DNA of 64,000 bases. It comes from Mycoplasma bradburyae. GTDB taxonomy: Bacteria; Bacillota_I; Bacilli_A; Mycoplasmatales; Mycoplasmoidaceae. The DNA is taken from assembly GCF_024339025.1 (NCBI RefSeq), contig NZ_CP101415.1, forward strand, positions 124,001 to 188,000, given 5' to 3'. Both the position numbers and the translations under genes were made by a program. This document shows, one piece after another, positions 8,331-34,294 of the stretch (positions are counted from its first letter, which is position 1; every line of letters begins with the position of its first letter). The notes below the pieces were generated by a model. The model did not search any database, was not told the DNA's origin, and saw nothing but the letters and a program-made list of their open reading frames with translations.

Positions 8331-8990
8331 ATGAATAGTAATTTTATTTTAATCGTCTTATTAGTAGTTGTTCCAATTGGATTCATAAGTTATTTTATTT
8401 ATAAAAGAAAAAAAACTACAGGTTCAGGTGAATTTGTTGGAAGAACTAAGGATGAACGCAGAAACGAAGTTTGAAAAACTGTTAAAAAATATCTGCAAGA
8501 TAACGACATGTATGGTCGTGAGATCATGTATACTTTTGTCGCAAAAAGACCGTCAGCTAATGATGATAAGAAGCTTCACAAACAGTTTAAAGAAGAAACA
8601 AAAAAATATTTATTAGAGCATAAATTATCTAAAAAAGATAAGAAAGCTTATCTAAAAAGTCGGTCTAAGGAAATGGCTCGTGAAAGATATTGCATCTATT
8701 TTCAAACAAAGGATGCTAAGACTCAATCTGTTTTTGATCCAGAAATTATTGAGGCTGAAGTATTAACATTACCTCCTAAAAAAAGAGGTGATGCTCCTGA
8801 AAGAAAAATTCAAATTAACGGATTACAAGATTTTAAAAAAGAGTTTGCTTGAATTGAACCTTTAAAAAATAAAGAAGATGCTCGATTAAAGAAAGCTGAA
8901 GACGAAAGAATTAGAAAGCTTGAAAGAAAAGAACAACGCAGATTAGCTAAGTTGGCTAAAAAAGAAGCTAAAACTAAAAAGAAGATTTAA
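8331..8990 (+). CDS. Single-pass membrane protein with lysine-rich cytoplasmic tail, unknown function
   Basis: The 219-residue protein opens with one membrane segment (NSNFILIVLLVVVPIGFISYFIY, about residues 2-24) followed by KRKK, which fixes the tail in the cytoplasm. The soluble part is highly charged (TFVAKRPSANDDKKLHKQFKEE, PEIIEAEVLTLPPKKRGDAPE) and ends in a K/E/R-rich helix from about residue 180. It looks like one of the mycoplasma-specific conserved membrane proteins, but I do not recognise a function. Its stop is 5 bases before fmt, so the two are co-transcribed. The true start is upstream of the ATG at 8508, since the frame crosses TGA codons. Confidence 0.8.
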
Positions 8991-8995
8991 TAAAA

Positions 8996-9943
8996 ATGAT
9001 TAAAAAAAGAGTTGCTTTTTTTGGTACAACAGAATTATCTTTAGTATGCCTTAAGGCTATGCTAAATGATAATTCTTTTGATGTAGTAGCAATTATATCT
9101 CCTCCCGACAGAGTAGATTTACGAAATAAAAAGAATAAATTAAATTCAGTTAAACAATTTTGCATAGATAATAATCTACAAATTTATCAACCTGAAAAAT
9201 TATCGGATTTCTATGAAGAATTAATAAATATGAATTTAGATTTGGGTGTATGTATAGCTTACGGACAATTTATTCCTAAAAAGGTTTTGAATCTATTTAA
9301 AGATGGAATAATCAATGTTCATCCTTCTAAATTACCGTTATTAAGAGGAGGTGCTCCTATTCATTATGCGATTATAAATGGATTTAAATCTACAGCTATT
9401 TCAATCATGAAGTTAGATGAAAAAATGGATCATGGTCCTGTGTATGATCAATTAGAAGTAGCTATTAAAGAAGAATGAAATCATGATGATTTAAATTCTG
9501 AAATTATTGCTAAATCACCAGGGTTTTTAATAAAAACTATAAAAAATATTTATGAGAAAAACCTAACAGCTAAAGAACAAGATCATGATCAATATACACT
9601 TGGCTTAAATATCAAAAAAGAACAAGAACATTTGAATTTAAATTTAGATGCCAACAGTTTTGTTAATTGACAAAAAGGATTATGATCAACCCCTGGTGGT
9701 TATTTGATTTATGATGGATATAGAGTTAAAATAGCTCAAGCAAAAGTTGTTGAGAATGAACAAGACAACCAAATAGATCTGATAGGATCAATATACAAAA
9801 TTGATAAAACAGGTATTTATGTATATCTAAAAAGAGGGTCAATTGCCATTACTAAATACCTATTACCTTCTAAAAAAGTTGCAGATATAAAGCAATCAAT
9901 TAATGGAAACATTCCATTTAAAATAAATACAAAATTTGAATAA
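8996..9943 (+). CDS. fmt: Methionyl-tRNA formyltransferase
   Basis: Fmt formylates Met-tRNA-fMet for translation initiation. The 315-residue protein has the formyltransferase fold start KRVAFFGTTELSLVCLKAML and the catalytic triad Asn107, His109 (NVHPSKLPLLRGGAP) and Asp145 (KLDEKMDHGPV), spaced as in E. coli Fmt. The C-terminal OB-like domain begins near NWQKGLWSTPGGYLIY. Length is normal for the family. It lies 5 bases after the membrane protein gene and 2 bases before the DUF2779 gene. The substrate tRNA-fMet is encoded at 54164. Confidence 0.95.
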
Positions 9944-27653: not shown

Positions 27654-27656
27654 ATG

Positions 27657-30600
27657 ATGGCTAATAAGAAAAGTTTATTTAACGAAATGACTAGAGTGCA
27701 ATTGCCTGCGATTGTACATTTAACTAGGTTAGGCTATCAATATATTGGAAAAATTACCGAAGAAATGAAGGGTGATTTTTATGATCCTGAAACTAATATA
27801 TTAATAAAGATTTTTAAAGAACAATTTGCTAAACTAAATCCAGATCATGTCGATAAATTTGAAGAAATTATAAGAGATATAAAAGTTGATTTAAATAATG
27901 ATGATTTAGGTAAAAGTTTTTATAAAAAACTTATTTCGGTATCACCTTACAAATTTATAGATTTTGAAAATATAAATAACAACACCTTTCATGTTACGGG
28001 GGAATTTTCCTGCAAAAATGGTGATGATGAATTCAGGCCAGACATCACACTTTTTATAAATGGATTGCCATTAGTTTTTATAGAGGTTAAACAACCTAAT
28101 AACAATGGTGGTATGTTAGAAGAAAGTAAGAGGTTAACTGAAAGTAGATTCCCTAAAAATAAATTTAGAAGATTCATAAACATAACTCAATTGATGATAT
28201 TTTCTAACAACATGGAATATGACAAAAAAGGTGGAATTATTCCTATTGAAGGTGTGTTTTATTGTACAGCTTCTAAAAAAGAAGCTTTGTTTAACTGCTT
28301 CAGGGAAGAAAATCCTAAAAATGAAGATATAGCTCCTTATATAAAAAACTATCAATACAAAGCTTTAGATAAAGATATAGAAAGAAAAATATTATCAGAT
28401 TTTAACTATCAAGTTATACATACAACCCCTGAGTATCAAACTAATATAAATATAAACACACCAACTAATAGAACGTTAACTTCTATGTGTTCTAAAGAAC
28501 GTTTATTATTTATTATTAGGTATGGAATAGCTTATGTAAATGATCAAAAAGAAATTGATGGAAAAATAAATTCTATCGAGCAAAAACAAATAATACGATA
28601 TCAACAACTATTTGCTGCGTTATCAATAATTGAGAAACTAAATGAAGGGACAAGATCGGGCATTATTTGACATACTCAAGGAAGCGGAAAAACAGCTCTT
28701 TCTTATTATTTAAATTCAATACTAAAAGATTATTATGCTAAGAAAAATATAGTTGCCAAATTTTATTTCATAGTAGATCGAATAGATTTACTAGAACAAG
28801 CGACTCAAGAATTCGAGGCGAGAGGTTGTTATGTGAAAAAGATTAACTCAAAAGATGAGTTAATGAAACATTTTAGAAATAACCAATCCCTTGAAGGTAG
28901 TTCTGGTCAAAATGAAATAAGTGTAGTAAACATACAAAAATTTGCACAAGATAAAGATAAAATTGAATTAAATGATTATGGAACTAATCTTCAAAGAATT
29001 TTTATAATTGATGAAGCACACAGAGGGTATAACCCTAAAGGTTGTTTCTTAGCAAATCTTTTTAATTCTGATAAAAACTCGATTAAAATTGCTTTAACAG
29101 GTACGCCATTACTAGCTGAAGAACGTACTTCTTGGAAAATATTTGGTAACTACATACATACTTATTATTATGATAAATCGATTCAAGATGGATACACTGT
29201 TAAAATAATAAGAGAAGATATAAAAACTTCATATAAGGAAAAACTTAATAAGATATACGATGAATTAAACTATATTCTTCAAAAGAACAAATTAGGTAAA
29301 AATAGGATAGTAGAACATGAGAATTATGTAAAAGAATTAATTAAATACATAATATCTGATCTTAAAGAATTTAGAACTATTAGAAATGACAATACCTTAG
29401 GTGGTATGGTTATATGTCGTTCAAGCGAACAAGCTAAAAAATTTGCTAGCTTGTTCAATGAAGTTCAAAATGAAGTTAATAATTCATTATCAAACGAAAA
29501 AGATAAAACTCATTTTAAGATAGGATTAATTCTTCATGATGTTGATGATAAAGAAACAAGAAAAAGAATGATACTAGACTATAAGAAAAATATGTCTATT
29601 GATATTCTTGTTGTTTTCAATATGTTATTAACAGGATTTGATGCTCCTAGATTAAAACGGTTATATTTTGGTCGAAAGTTAGAAGATCATAATTTATTGC
29701 AAGCTATAACTAGAGTAAATAGACCATATAAAAATAATAGATATGGATATTTAATTGACTTTGCTGATATTAAAAAGAATTTTAAGCAAACAAATGAGGC
29801 ATATCTTAAAGAGTTAAACCGATTTAATGATGGTAATCAAATAGGTATAGATGCCAATAACACCTTATCTAAGATAATAGAAGATCCCGAAGCTCTGATT
29901 GAAAACTTAAAAGAAGCTAAGCAAGCATTATTTGAATTTACAATTGAAAATCTTGAAGTTTTTAATAAAGAAATTTCTGAAATAAAAGATAAGAAAAATC
30001 TTTTAAGACTTAAATGCGCTTTAGAATCTGCTAAGGATTCATTTAATATAATTACAACATTTGGTGATGATGAATTAAAAAATCGTCTTCAAAATTTACA
30101 AATTGATAAGTTACCACAAATGCTCTCTGTCACTCAAAAACGCATTAATATAATCAATCAAAAAGAAATGATGTTATCAGATGATTATAATCAACAAACT
30201 ATTAATGCTGCTATGGCAGAAATAGAATTTAGTTTTGAAAAGATTGGTGATGAAGAATTATCTTTAATTTCTGATGATAATGATTTAAAAACTAAATGAG
30301 AAGAAGTGATTAAGAAGTTTGGTGAGTATATCGATCCAGAAGATCCTGAATACTTAAAATTAAAAAATATGTTTTTTCAAAAAATGAAGGATGATGGTTT
30401 TACTATTAGTTCTTTTGATGAATTCAATGATAAAAAAGAATTTATAGATGAAATAATAAACTCTCTTAAGGAACTTAAACGAAAAGATGATGTTCTATTA
30501 AAGAAATATAATGGCGATGAAAAATTTGTGAGAATTCATAAGAGAATAAAAGAAAAAAATATTAATAAAGAAAAGGAAAAATCTAATCCAATTATTTCTA

Positions 30601-30836
30601 ATCAAGATGACGAAATTGTAAATACATTAAACGTAATAAAAACAAATGTAGATAATAGAGTTTATGATAGAAACGATATTCTAAAAAAAGAATCTTACTT
30701 TAATAAAGCTATTATGAATGATATTACAACTGTGCTTAAAGAATTAAATGTAAGAAATGAAAGAAAAGACAAAGACTTTATACTATCAATAATTAGTAGA
30801 GAATATTTATCACAGTATAACGATATGTTTAATTAG
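27657..30836 (+). CDS. hsdR: Type I restriction enzyme, R subunit
   Basis: The 1059-residue motor and nuclease subunit of a type I restriction-modification system has a PD-(D/E)xK nuclease site early (FRPDITLF near 125, then FIEVKQ with Glu143 and Lys145). The superfamily 2 translocase motifs follow: HTQGSGKTAL (about 340), DEAH (452), ALTGTP, TGFDAPRLKRLYF and QAITRVNRPY. All key residues are present, and the frame is unbroken with TGA as Trp. GGGAG precedes two possible ATGs (27654, 27657). It is 9 bases upstream of hsdM and should form an R2M2S complex that cuts unmethylated foreign DNA. Confidence 0.96.
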
Positions 30837-30845
30837 GAAAATATT

Positions 30846-32486
30846 ATGAACGAGAATATTAGACAAAAAACAATAAATTTAATTGATGAATTAAAAAGCA
30901 CTTGTCAAACATATGGACTTGGAAATGACGGTAATGAATACAAAATTATTACCCAAGTTTTCTTGTATAAGTTTTTAAATGACAAATTCAGTTCTGAAAT
31001 CAAGAAAATTAGAAATGATTTTAAGGAATTAGAAAAATGAGAAGATTCATACGCTAAATTAAGTGAAGACGAAGTCTTGGATATATTTGACGAATTATCT
31101 CCTGACATTCCAAGATTAAGACCTGAACATTTAATTACCTTTTTATGAAACAATCAAACAAAAGGAAATTTTGCTAATCTTTTTGATGAAACGATGATTA
31201 AGATTGCAAATGAAAATATCGATATTTTCTCAACAGAAACTACAGAAAAAACAAGAATACCTATATTTGAAAAATTAACTGTTTATGTAACTGATGAAGC
31301 TAAAAGAGATTCTTTTGCAAGAGCTTTAGTAGATAAATTAGTTAACTTTTCATTTGAAGAAACATTCCAAGAACATTACGATTTTTTTGCAACAATATTC
31401 GAATATTTGCTTAAAGATTACAACACTGCAGGTGGTGGTAAATATGCTGAATATTACACTCCTCACGGAATTGCTACGATAATGGCTAAATTATTAGTAG
31501 ATGATAATGAAGATTTACGTAATATTGAAATCTATGACCCTAGCTCAGGTACAGGTACATTATTAATGGCACTAAGTCATAGAATTGGTCAAGACAAATG
31601 TACTATATTTGCTCAAGATATATCGCAAAGAAGTAATAAGATGCTTAAACTAAACTTAATCTTAAATGGTTTAGTTTCTTCTCTTGAACATGCAATACAA
31701 GGTGATACTTTAACAAGTCCTTATCATAAAAGTGATAATAACCAGTCGTTAAGACAATTTGATTATGTAGTATCAAACCCTCCATTTAAAATGGATTTCT
31801 CTGATACTAGAGATAAAATTGCTAGTATGCAAGAAAGATTCTGAGCTGGTGTTCCTAAAGTTCCCGCTAAAAAGAAGGAAAGCATGGCTATATACACTTT
31901 ATTCATACAGCATGTTATCAATTCGATAAAAGACAATGGTAAAGGAGCGATTGTTGTTCCGACAGGATTTATTACTTCTAAATCAGGTATTGAAGGTAAT
32001 GTATTACGTTATATAGTTGATAACAAATATGTATCTGGTGTTATTAGCATGCCTTCAAACGTTTTTGCCAACACAGGTACTAATGTTTCTGTAATCTTTT
32101 TTGACAAATCAAAAAAACACAATGATGTTATTTTAATCGATGCATCTAATCTTGGTGAAGATTATAAAGAAGATAATCTTCAAAAGAAACGATTAAGACC
32201 TGATGAAATTGACAAAATTGTTACAACATTTAGAAAAAGAAAAGCAGTTGATGATTTTTCTGTTTTAGTTTCTTATGATGAAATTAAAGAAAAGAATTAT
32301 TCATTATCAGCAGGTCAATATTTTGACATCAAGATTGAATACGTAGAAATTTCTCAAGAAGAATTCGAGAATAAGATGTTAGATTACGAGAAAGAATTAA
32401 CAAAACTATTCAAAGAAAGTGAAAAGTTGCAAAAAGAAATATTAACTGAAATGAAGAAAGTTAAATTTAATGGCGATAAAAAATAA
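30846..32486 (+). CDS. hsdM: Type I restriction-modification methyltransferase, M subunit
   Basis: The 546-residue N6-adenine methyltransferase has the HsdM N-terminal helical domain, GKYAEYYTPHGIA, SAM motif I YDPSSGTGTLLMAL (about 230) and the catalytic NPPF at 311-314 (VVSNPPFKMDF). The helix at the C terminus (FENKMLDYEKELTKLFKESEKLQKEI) would contact HsdS. It appears intact. Its last 17 bases overlap the start of the half-length hsdS. Confidence 0.96.
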
Positions 32487-32946
32487 GTGATCAAAAATTG
32501 CTGATTATGCAAGTATCAGGAATGGGAAAAATTACGTTTGCAATAGCGTAATTAATGGTAAATATCCTTTTTTTGATAGATCAAAAAATATTAAATATAG
32601 TGATCGATATTTATTTGATGAAGAGGCTATTATAATTCCGAGTGATGGTAAAGAATTTATTCCGAAATACTATAAAGGAAAATTCGATTTACATCAAAAA
32701 TGTCATGCATTATACAAATTTAGGAATATTGATCCCAAATACCTTTATTACTACATTTTAGCTAATAATTCTAAGTTAAATAAAAAAGCTAGCGGTTCAA
32801 CGGTTGCAAGTTTAAGCATAAAAGAAATTTTAAGCTTTCCGTTGCTATTGCCGGAATTGAAAAAACAAAATTTGGTTTCAAATTTATTGTTTAAAATTGA
32901 TCAAAAAATTGAGACTAATAAGAAGATAAACGATAATTTATTTTAA
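32470..32946 (+). CDS. hsdS: Type I specificity subunit, N-terminal half only
   Basis: The 158-residue protein contains one target recognition domain (WSKIADYASIRNGKNYV to KKASGSTVASLSIKEILSFPLLLP) and the first part of the central helix (LFKIDQKIETNKKINDNL). It then stops after one further residue, while a normal HsdS is about 380-400 residues with two such domains. The break lies exactly at a 15-base sequence repeated in inverted orientation at 33812-33826, where the missing half continues on the other strand. A half-size HsdS can in principle dimerise and read a palindromic site, so it may still work. Confidence 0.85.
32926..32940 (+). repeat. 15-bp inverted repeat, copy 1, inside hsdS central helix
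   Basis: ATAAACGATAATTTA, identical to the reverse complement of 33812-33826. It encodes INDNL of the HsdS central helix. Neighbouring bases on both sides differ, so exactly 15 bases are shared. Confidence 0.9.
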
Positions 32947-33006
32947 ATAAAATTTATATAAATAAAACTTATCTTAAACCAATAATTCATTAAAATAATA
33001 TTCATT

Positions 33007-33037
33007 ATATTGCGATATTTAACGCAATATTTTTTTT
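33007..33037 (+). terminator. Terminator after the hsd operon
   Basis: 8-bp perfect stem ATATTGCG/CGCAATAT with an 8-base loop, followed by T7, 61 bases after the hsdS half gene. It lies inside the possibly invertible segment, so inversion would place it downstream of the HNH-like gene instead. Confidence 0.8.
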
Positions 33038-33107
33038 ATAAAAAACATCAATTTACCGTTTTTTTTCAAAATTTATCTTTGTTAAAAATAATTTATTTAT
33101 TAATTTC

Positions 33108-33835
33108 TTAATCAATTCTTACTTGACCGTTCATTAATAGTGGTAATAGGAAATCTCTTATTTGCATTAATTTTCATTTTCTAAAGAATTCTTAATAAGA
33201 ATTTCATACATTGGAGCTGATAAGAGATAATACTTCAATAAAACTTGTTCTTCAGGTACTACTATTAATGAATTTTCTACAGTTTCTTTATTTATATGTT
33301 TTTGACAATTTCCTGTTGAAATCGCTGTATAATTCGAAATTAATCGCGATAAATACTGATGTATAAAAGGATGTTTAAACTTTTTGTTTTCAAGAACAGC
33401 TACAACTGATTGGTTTGCGCAAGCTTCAATAGCTAAACAGCTTACCCTAATGTTACCTGTTATCGAAATAACAGTAGCTCCCTTCGGAATAAGTTTCGTT
33501 GCTGAATTATCTATTCCTTTTTGAGTAATTTTCTTTGCTGAAGTTACAACAGGAAATTGTGCTATTTCTCCTGAATTAAGTCAATTTATATCTCCATTTC
33601 AATATTCACTATTTTTAGTGCTTGGAGTACCACCTAATAAAATATTGCATAACTCAGATAATTTTTTTACTTCTCATCCAATAGGGATGTGTTTCTTTAA
33701 TGAATTATTTCATTTCATTTTTCCATCGGAATATCTATAGGGTTTATTAGTTAAATCAGGAAAATCATATTGAGTAAATCAATAATCATATAAAGTGTTT
33801 AATTGTCGTTTTAAATTATCGTTTATAACAAATTG
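33108..33835 (-). pseudogene. hsdS: Orphan C-terminal half of hsdS, inverted
   Basis: On the minus strand, INDNLKRQLNTLYDYWFTQYDFPD (central helix) is followed by WEVKKLSELCNILLGGTPSTK, GDINWLNSGEIAQFP and SVVAVLENKKFKHPF, a complete second target recognition domain. No start codon lies at its head: the frame is preceded by the TAG of the HNH-like gene. The frame stops at 33167, but the next frame reads MQIRDFLLPLLMNGQVRID, the canonical HsdS C terminus. One A has therefore been lost in an A4 run (33171-33174 on plus). Joined at the 15-base repeat, it would complete the N-terminal half in frame. Confidence 0.85.
33812..33826 (-). repeat. 15-bp inverted repeat, copy 2, at head of orphan hsdS half
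   Basis: Reverse complement reads ATAAACGATAATTTA, identical to 32926-32940. Together the copies bound an 871-base segment (32941-33811). Confidence 0.9.
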
Positions 33836-34294
33836 CTATTCTTCAAACTCAAGACCCCTTAAATATTCAGGTCAATTTTTAATATAAGGAATATTATATT
33901 TTTCACAATATTCTTTATTTATGGAATCTCATTGTTGAAGCGATATCTGAAGCAACATTCCATAATTAGGTATAGTAGTCTGACTCATAACAATTAAATA
34001 ATGTAAGAATGCATGTTCTTCAATATTTACTGTTAAAGACAAACCATTATCATATAAATTTTGATCTTCTTTTAATATCGCTCCAGAACAATATATTTCA
34101 TCGACATGATGTCGTTGATAAAATCAACTATTTTTATATTTCTTAGGTTTAAAGTTTTTTAATGATTTTAATATTGGTTTTAGTTCTTTATAAGGCTTAA
34201 AATCTTCTTGATTATGTTTCTTTAAAAATACCTCTAACATCCTAAAGTAACACTCAATAAAAAACTTGTTTATTTCGTTGAAATTATAAGTCAT
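33836..34294 (-). CDS. HNH-endonuclease-like small protein
   Basis: The 152-residue frame is open only with TGA as Trp (three codons). It runs from MTYNFNEINKFFIECYF to LRGLEFEE and a TAG. The segment WFYQRHHVDEIY, then NGLSLTVNIEEHAFLHYLI, follows the H-H ... N-x-L-T ... E-H-x3-H layout of phage and homing-type HNH nucleases (HHI...N-V-L-T-x-x-E-H). The metal-site match is partial, so the call is tentative. Its stop codon sits 9 bases before the hsdS inverted repeat and in the same frame as the orphan hsdS half. It may be a nuclease associated with the hsd island, or a remnant of a mobile element. Confidence 0.55.

What the first reader, a model, noticed from the sequence alone, without database searches (positions are those of the whole stretch)
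33836..34294. Hidden HNH-like gene beside the inverted hsdS half, in the same reading frame
A 152-codon frame that exists only when TGA is read as Trp carries an HH...N-x-L-T...EH-x3-H pattern like phage HNH nucleases. Its TAG stop is followed, in frame, by QFV and then the orphan hsdS half. Suppression or loss of that one stop codon would fuse a nuclease-like domain to an HsdS target recognition half. A nuclease next to a switchable restriction locus could be an extra defence effector or the remnant of the element that moved hsdS.
Basis: partly seen in the sequence, partly recalled or inferred. Interest (0 to 1): 0.68.

Follow-up and report, generated by a model that had tools for sequence, protein, structure and literature searches.

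The report
Unnamed HNH-like nuclease gene beside hsdS
A small mycoplasma gene next to a restriction system belongs to a previously unnamed protein family that is probably an HNH-like DNA-cutting enzyme; it is not about to fuse with its neighbour, because the bases between them are a recombination site that recurs at four places in the same genome.

Summary
The ORF is real: 152 codons on the MINUS strand (34294..33836), three TGA-Trp, TAG stop, with the 3' half of hsdS following in frame. It is not a chance frame. 24 of 320 Mycoplasmatales genomes and one archaeal MAG encode relatives; dN/dS is 0.06-0.40. No family in Pfam, NCBIfam, PHROGs or PADLOC reaches its cut-off. H62, H63, E66, H94 and H98 are invariant in 28 sequences; the HNH asparagine is not conserved. 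A model of the archaeal homologue (pLDDT 80, pTM 0.80) has strand-(HH)-loop-strand-helix(EHxxxH), the order of a beta-beta-alpha metal site, but no solved structure matched. Profile comparison ties the family to NCBIfam SAV1803_dom (91%, E 1e-6), one member of which ends an SNF2 helicase and others lie beside AbiJ, OLD-like, Schlafen or RloAB genes. I read it as a divergent, probably defence-linked HNH-like nuclease. The fusion idea fails: the other genome of the species has two stops there, and 'QFVINDN' is a 23-bp site (AATTTGTTATAAACGATAATTTA) found at four loci. It bounds hsdS half-gene cassettes that occur at several loci and in both orientations, with one tyrosine recombinase in the genome.

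The parts
33836..34294 (-). 152-aa HNH-like protein gene (code 4), ATG at 34294, TAG at 33838-33836
   Evidence: family; dN/dS
34106..34111 (-). codons H62 H63: invariant HH; by analogy metal ligand and general base (inferred)
   Evidence: analogy to colicin-type HNH is established knowledge
34097..34099 (-). codon E66, invariant in the family
34001..34015 (-). codons H94-x3-H98, invariant; predicted helix, putative metal ligands (inferred)
33812..33834 (-). outer recombination-type site AATTTGTTATAAACGATAATTTA (the source of 'QFVINDNL')
32926..32940 (+). inner inverted copy of the core site, ATAAACGATAATTTA, in the hsdS central region (KINDNL)
32926..33826 (.). hsdS half-gene cassette A (901 bp, site to site), 99.7% identical to a second copy at G000:672396-673299
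33167..33835 (-). orphan hsdS 3' half (Methylase_S); frame ends early compared with other cassettes
32470..32946 (+). hsdS 5' half following hsdM (Methylase_S)
30846..32486 (+). hsdM, 546 aa; assigned by its sequence (NPPF motif) and place in the locus, not by a library match
27654..30836 (+). hsdR, 1060 aa; assigned by its sequence and place in the locus, not by a library match

Best explanation
The ORF encodes a single-domain protein of a small, so far unnamed family, remotely related to NCBIfam SAV1803_dom. Most likely it folds as a divergent HNH (His-Me finger, beta-beta-alpha metal) nuclease: H62, H94 and H98 hold one divalent metal, H63 is the general base, and the usual Asn is replaced. 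Most likely role: a horizontally spread, defence-linked DNA nuclease that happens to lie just outside a site-specific hsdS cassette. Shown: real conserved protein, invariant HH..E..H...H, remote homology to SAV1803_dom, predicted strand-strand-helix order in one homologue, no conserved fusion. Inferred: metal binding, DNA cleavage, defence role.
For: Family of 28 sequences with H62, H63, E66, H94, H98 invariant. dN/dS 0.06-0.40. AlphaFold2 model of homologue L035: strand 47-51 ending at HH (50, 51), strand 72-77, helix 78-90 with H81 and H85; pLDDT 80.3, pTM 0.80. hhalign to SAV1803_dom 91.3%, E 9.6e-7, the HHIDE and EHxxLH motifs aligned; reversed and shuffled controls below 1%. SAV1803_dom is the C-terminal part (809-985) of a 1000-aa SNF2 helicase protein and lies beside AbiJ_NTD3-kinase and OLD-like AAA/TOPRIM genes (L152), Schlafen-g3 helicase and RloA/RloB-like genes (L158), an N6 methylase (L155), and at the edge of S. 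aureus vSa-beta, which carries hsdMS (PMC6805111). 9 of 25 family genes within 7.5 kb of a PF01420, PF00145 or PF01555 gene, 2.95 expected, P 0.0016.
Against: The Asn position is not conserved. hhalign against HNH and HNH_3 alignments below 1%. Foldseek gave no PDB hit with E <= 0.001; the best viral hits, some named homing endonucleases, had E 0.2-0.5. The window protein's own model is low-confidence at the HH. Most family neighbours are housekeeping genes. PADLOC has no match of note. Some relatives of SAV1803_dom have lost part of the His motif (L156, L161).
Confidence: 0.55

Rival explanations
1. A free-standing selfish nuclease (homing-endonuclease-like) that inserts singly into intergenic sites; the hsdS neighbourhood is accidental.
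For: Patchy distribution (24 of 320 genomes); single genes among unrelated housekeeping genes: peptidase M42, aquaporin, EF-Tu, UvrB, L15, MgtE; two or three copies in some genomes; one archaeal member; top viral Foldseek hits include homing endonucleases, not significant.
Against: Three related genomes keep the gene at the same place (L053, L055, L056) and two keep it beside uvrB (L052, L057), as for resident genes; enrichment near restriction-modification genes; no target site or intron seen.
Confidence: 0.22
2. A metal-binding or regulatory protein that shares the fold but does not cut DNA.
For: No conserved Asn; several members have an N-terminal membrane segment (L039, L041, L042, L050, L052, L057); Foldseek and HNH profile searches negative.
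Against: All four His are invariant in 28 divergent sequences; SNF2 fusion in the relative family.
Confidence: 0.2
3. Nuclease-HsdS fusion switched on by suppression or loss of the TAG stop.
For: The frames are in phase in this strain.
Against: The other same-species genome has TAG followed by TAA, and there the full hsdS lies about 570 bp away on its own start; the linking codons are the site AATTTGTTATAAACGATAATTTA, also at G000 446k, 600k and 880k with other upstream sequence.
Confidence: 0.02
4. The gene belongs to the element that moves hsdS, or is its remnant.
For: It abuts the outer site.
Against: The other hsdS half-cassette loci have no copy: the own genome holds one good match to the family; the likely recombinase is a tyrosine integrase at G000:446454; relatives occur without hsdS.
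Confidence: 0.04

Closest known systems
NCBIfam NF053682 SAV1803_dom (SAV1803-related protein, function unknown)
   Same: HHIDE then EHxLLH motif, order and spacing alike; hhalign 91%, E 1e-6; small solitary proteins near defence genes
   Different: family members do not reach the 40-bit cut-off (best shown 19.8); the YCNLLEH strand motif of SAV1803 is replaced by SiiVs.eEH; the RHHIDEI.ISGA and TT.PN.GML motifs are new
HNH_3 (PF13392) and HNH (PF01844) nucleases, incl. colicin-type H-N-H
   Same: HH and HxxxH pattern; strand-strand-helix order in the model
   Different: no conserved Asn, no profile significance, no Cys pairs
Inverting type I restriction loci (S. pneumoniae SpnIII, M. pulmonis hsd)
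   Same: for the neighbour: hsdS pieces between inverted repeats; a tyrosine recombinase in the genome
   Different: here half-gene cassettes with a 15-bp core are spread over four or five separate loci

Membership tests
HNH / His-Me finger nuclease | HH (metal ligand plus general base) and downstream metal His | tested here: met
   H62, H63, H94, H98 invariant in 28
HNH / His-Me finger nuclease | conserved Asn between the strands | tested here: not met
   N83 column: N 8, T 7, K 5, Q 4 of 28
HNH / His-Me finger nuclease | beta-beta-alpha fold | tested here: inconclusive
   right order in the L035 model, low confidence in the window model, no significant Foldseek hit
HNH / His-Me finger nuclease | sequence-profile match to Pfam HNH families | tested here: not met
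   no Pfam hit; hhalign below 1%
HNH / His-Me finger nuclease | metal-dependent cleavage of nucleic acid | not testable with these tools
   needs biochemistry
SAV1803_dom (NF053682) | score at or above the curated 40 bits | tested here: not met
   matches listed at 13-20 bits; best member E 1.1e-4
SAV1803_dom (NF053682) | colinear remote homology over the motif region | tested here: met
   hhalign 91.3%, E 9.6e-7, 92 columns; controls below 1%
Known anti-phage defence protein (PADLOC) | model match | tested here: not met
   only Avs3b at E 0.011 and mad1 at 0.041
Inverting type I restriction locus (neighbour) | hsdS pieces between inverted repeats, inversion rebuilding a full hsdS | tested here: met
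   core 32926-32940 (+) and 33812-33826 (-); cassette B in both orientations between genomes
Inverting type I restriction locus (neighbour) | inversion observed within one culture | not testable with these tools
   needs reads or PCR

The most novel reading that the evidence does not exclude
The family, with SAV1803_dom, is a new class of Asn-less HNH-like nuclease that serves as an extra effector of restriction or defence loci in mollicutes and other Bacilli, here placed at the fixed edge of a multi-locus hsdS cassette switch.
Probability: 0.15. Interest if true: 0.7.

Novelty: new variant of a known kind. Interest (0 to 1): 0.48.

Why it matters
A conserved 'hypothetical' protein of several animal mycoplasmas (including M. 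hyopneumoniae, WP_011205931) gets a testable activity and remote relatives in staphylococci and enterococci. The neighbourhood also suggests that the split hsdS of this species, described in the literature as disrupted, is part of a multi-locus cassette system that could rebuild full specificity subunits, so the locus may be switchable rather than dead.

Tried and rejected
Window protein alone against Pfam, PHROGs, NCBIfam and PDB sequences: no credible match; the SidC, glgC, ceramidase and Avs3b hits are sub-threshold. Viral contigs, two scans: none; phage records with the archaeal member: none. The weak second hit in the own genome (L002, E 5.5e-4, stop inside) was not followed as a copy. 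Foldseek with both models: nothing significant. HNH and HNH_3 alignments built from fetched Bacilli genes: no significance. A combined motif profile against PDB: none. Literature searches for this gene under its M. hyopneumoniae accession and inferred locus tag: nothing.

Full report
OBSERVATION. The frame is on the minus strand, 34294 to 33836: 152 codons under code 4 with three TGA-Trp and a TAG stop. Downstream in the same frame lie QFVINDNLKRQ... and the hsdS 3' half. The window lies in a 971,445-bp single-contig genome; Ureaplasma canigenitalium (contig of the same length, 384,590) is in the same family as the window's genome. The species is probably Mycoplasmoides gallisepticum; that name is an inference from family, size and the shared, disrupted type I system described in PMC9681074, and was not tested.

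IT IS A REAL PROTEIN. With a profile from three sequences, 25 of 320 Mycoplasmatales genomes match at E <= 0.01, of which 24 are convincing (the 25th is at E 0.006). A contig of a Bathycorpusculum MAG also carries the gene, with TGG for Trp and archaeal-type neighbours such as a pyruvate:ferredoxin oxidoreductase, so it is unlikely to be mycoplasma contamination. No hit was seen outside Mycoplasmatales among 395 sampled Bacilli genomes. dN/dS in six pairs is 0.06-0.40. In the 28-sequence alignment Y16, H62, H63, E66, Y81, H94, H98 and I101 are invariant besides the start Met; W57, P109, N110, G112, W122, C130 and Y137 nearly so. The tree groups members by genus only in part, which fits some horizontal transfer.

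WHAT FOLD. The motif RHHIDEI.ISGA...Y..G.siivs.eEH.fLHYLIV recalls HH...(N)...H-x3-H of HNH nucleases; in colicin-type HNH enzymes the first H of HH and the two later H hold the metal and the second H is the base (established knowledge, not tested here). The Asn is not conserved. The window protein folded with a four-sequence alignment gave pLDDT 66 and low confidence over residues 36-69, which include the HH. The archaeal homologue with the same four sequences gave pLDDT 80.3 and pTM 0.80, with strand 47-51 (YARHH), strand 72-77 and helix 78-90 (EHLLLHYIIVMA), the order expected for a beta-beta-alpha metal site. Foldseek found nothing significant, so the fold assignment rests on motif and order. 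Only sequences from the search for related loci could be used in the folding job, which limited its depth.

REMOTE RELATIVES. NCBIfam SAV1803_dom matched 5 of 28 members weakly, best E 1.1e-4; the two best matches whose coordinates were printed are colinear. I collected SAV1803_dom proteins from Bacilli genomes; their core is GLyIHHIDEDKA...LvYCNLLEHLlLHIKI. Profile comparison gives 91.3% and E 9.6e-7 over 92 columns with the His motifs aligned; reversed and column-shuffled controls gave below 1%. One SAV1803 domain ends a 1000-aa SNF2 helicase protein. Others lie beside an AbiJ_NTD3-kinase gene and an OLD-like AAA/TOPRIM gene, beside Schlafen-g3 helicase and RloA/RloB-like genes, or near an N6 methylase; on staphylococcal and enterococcal plasmids they lie with toxin-antitoxin, recombinase and HEPN/Toprim genes. 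SAV1803 itself marks one end of S. aureus vSa-beta, which carries hsdM and hsdS (PMC6805111). These are contexts, not assays.

CONTEXT OF THE FAMILY. The immediate neighbours are mostly housekeeping genes. Against PF01420, PF00145 and PF01555 positions in the same genomes, 9 of 25 family genes lie within 7.5 kb, with 2.95 expected by random placement (P 0.0016; about 0.004 without near-duplicates). The PF01420 table was cut by the tool after its best matches, so the count is approximate. The enrichment is moderate and may reflect variable regions in general.

WHY THE FUSION IDEA FAILS. In the same-species genome G077 the gene is 98.5% identical in DNA but is followed by two stops, EE**FVINDN. 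The sequence after the gene, AATTTGTTATAAACGATAATTTA, also occurs at G000 446k, 600k and 880k with unrelated upstream sequence. It is the outer copy of a site whose core ATAAACGATAATTTA also lies inverted in the hsdS central region (32926-32940). The 901-bp cassette between the two cores in the window is 99.7% identical to one at 672 kb, where a different hsdS 5' half lies on each side. A second cassette (738 bp) is at 446k and 600k in G000 and at 457k and 671k in G077, inverted at 671k. One tyrosine recombinase (PF00589) is found per genome, directly upstream of the 446k/457k half-locus; that it acts on these sites is an inference. Inversion of the window cassette would join the two hsdS halves at INDN. 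PMC9681074 describes the S subunit of the shared type I system as disrupted in all strains analysed; its passages that I read do not mention these cassettes, so I cannot say whether the arrangement has been described elsewhere. The window's 3' half appears to end early compared with other cassettes, so a joined product might still be short.

VERDICT. A genuine, uncharacterised protein family that most likely is an Asn-less HNH-like nuclease, remotely related to SAV1803_dom and possibly linked to defence. The hsdS neighbour belongs to a separate, multi-locus cassette system whose fixed edge happens to touch this gene.

Noticed in passing
window 32926-33826; G000:672396-673299, 447412-448155, 600780-601521, 881099-881709: Half-gene hsdS cassettes bounded by ATAAACGATAATTTA cores at four or five loci, two of them near-identical at separate loci and one found in opposite orientation in G077: a multi-locus specificity-switching system.
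   Followed up: partly
L123:2118-2145 and L124:2180-2197: Tandem doubled sites ATAAACGATAATTTGTTATAAACGATAATTTA in G077, which look like integration scars or an empty site.
   Followed up: no
G000:446454-446930 (L118, L128): The only tyrosine recombinase (PF00589) found in the genome lies directly upstream of an hsdS half-locus; candidate inverting enzyme.
   Followed up: no
L045:7187-8035 and 8487-8996: Two tandem family members beside a C5 methylase, then hsdM- and hsdR-like genes; the first copy is long and divergent.
   Followed up: no
L039, L041, L042, L050, L052, L057: Family members with an N-terminal membrane segment; one (L042) is followed 24 bp on by a PD-(D/E)XK nuclease gene.
   Followed up: no
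L150:2739-5741: SNF2 helicase with a C-terminal SAV1803/HNH-like domain, reminiscent of the SNF2-HNH pairing of ZRANB3 (ZRANB3 from memory).
   Followed up: partly
L156:5048-6688: Adjacent SAV1803-like pair in a mollicute with one copy that has lost part of the second His motif; both end in a hydrophobic segment.
   Followed up: no
L074:8974-9426: M. hyopneumoniae member WP_011205931, annotated hypothetical, between an ABC permease gene and rpsP, near genes of a conjugative element.
   Followed up: no
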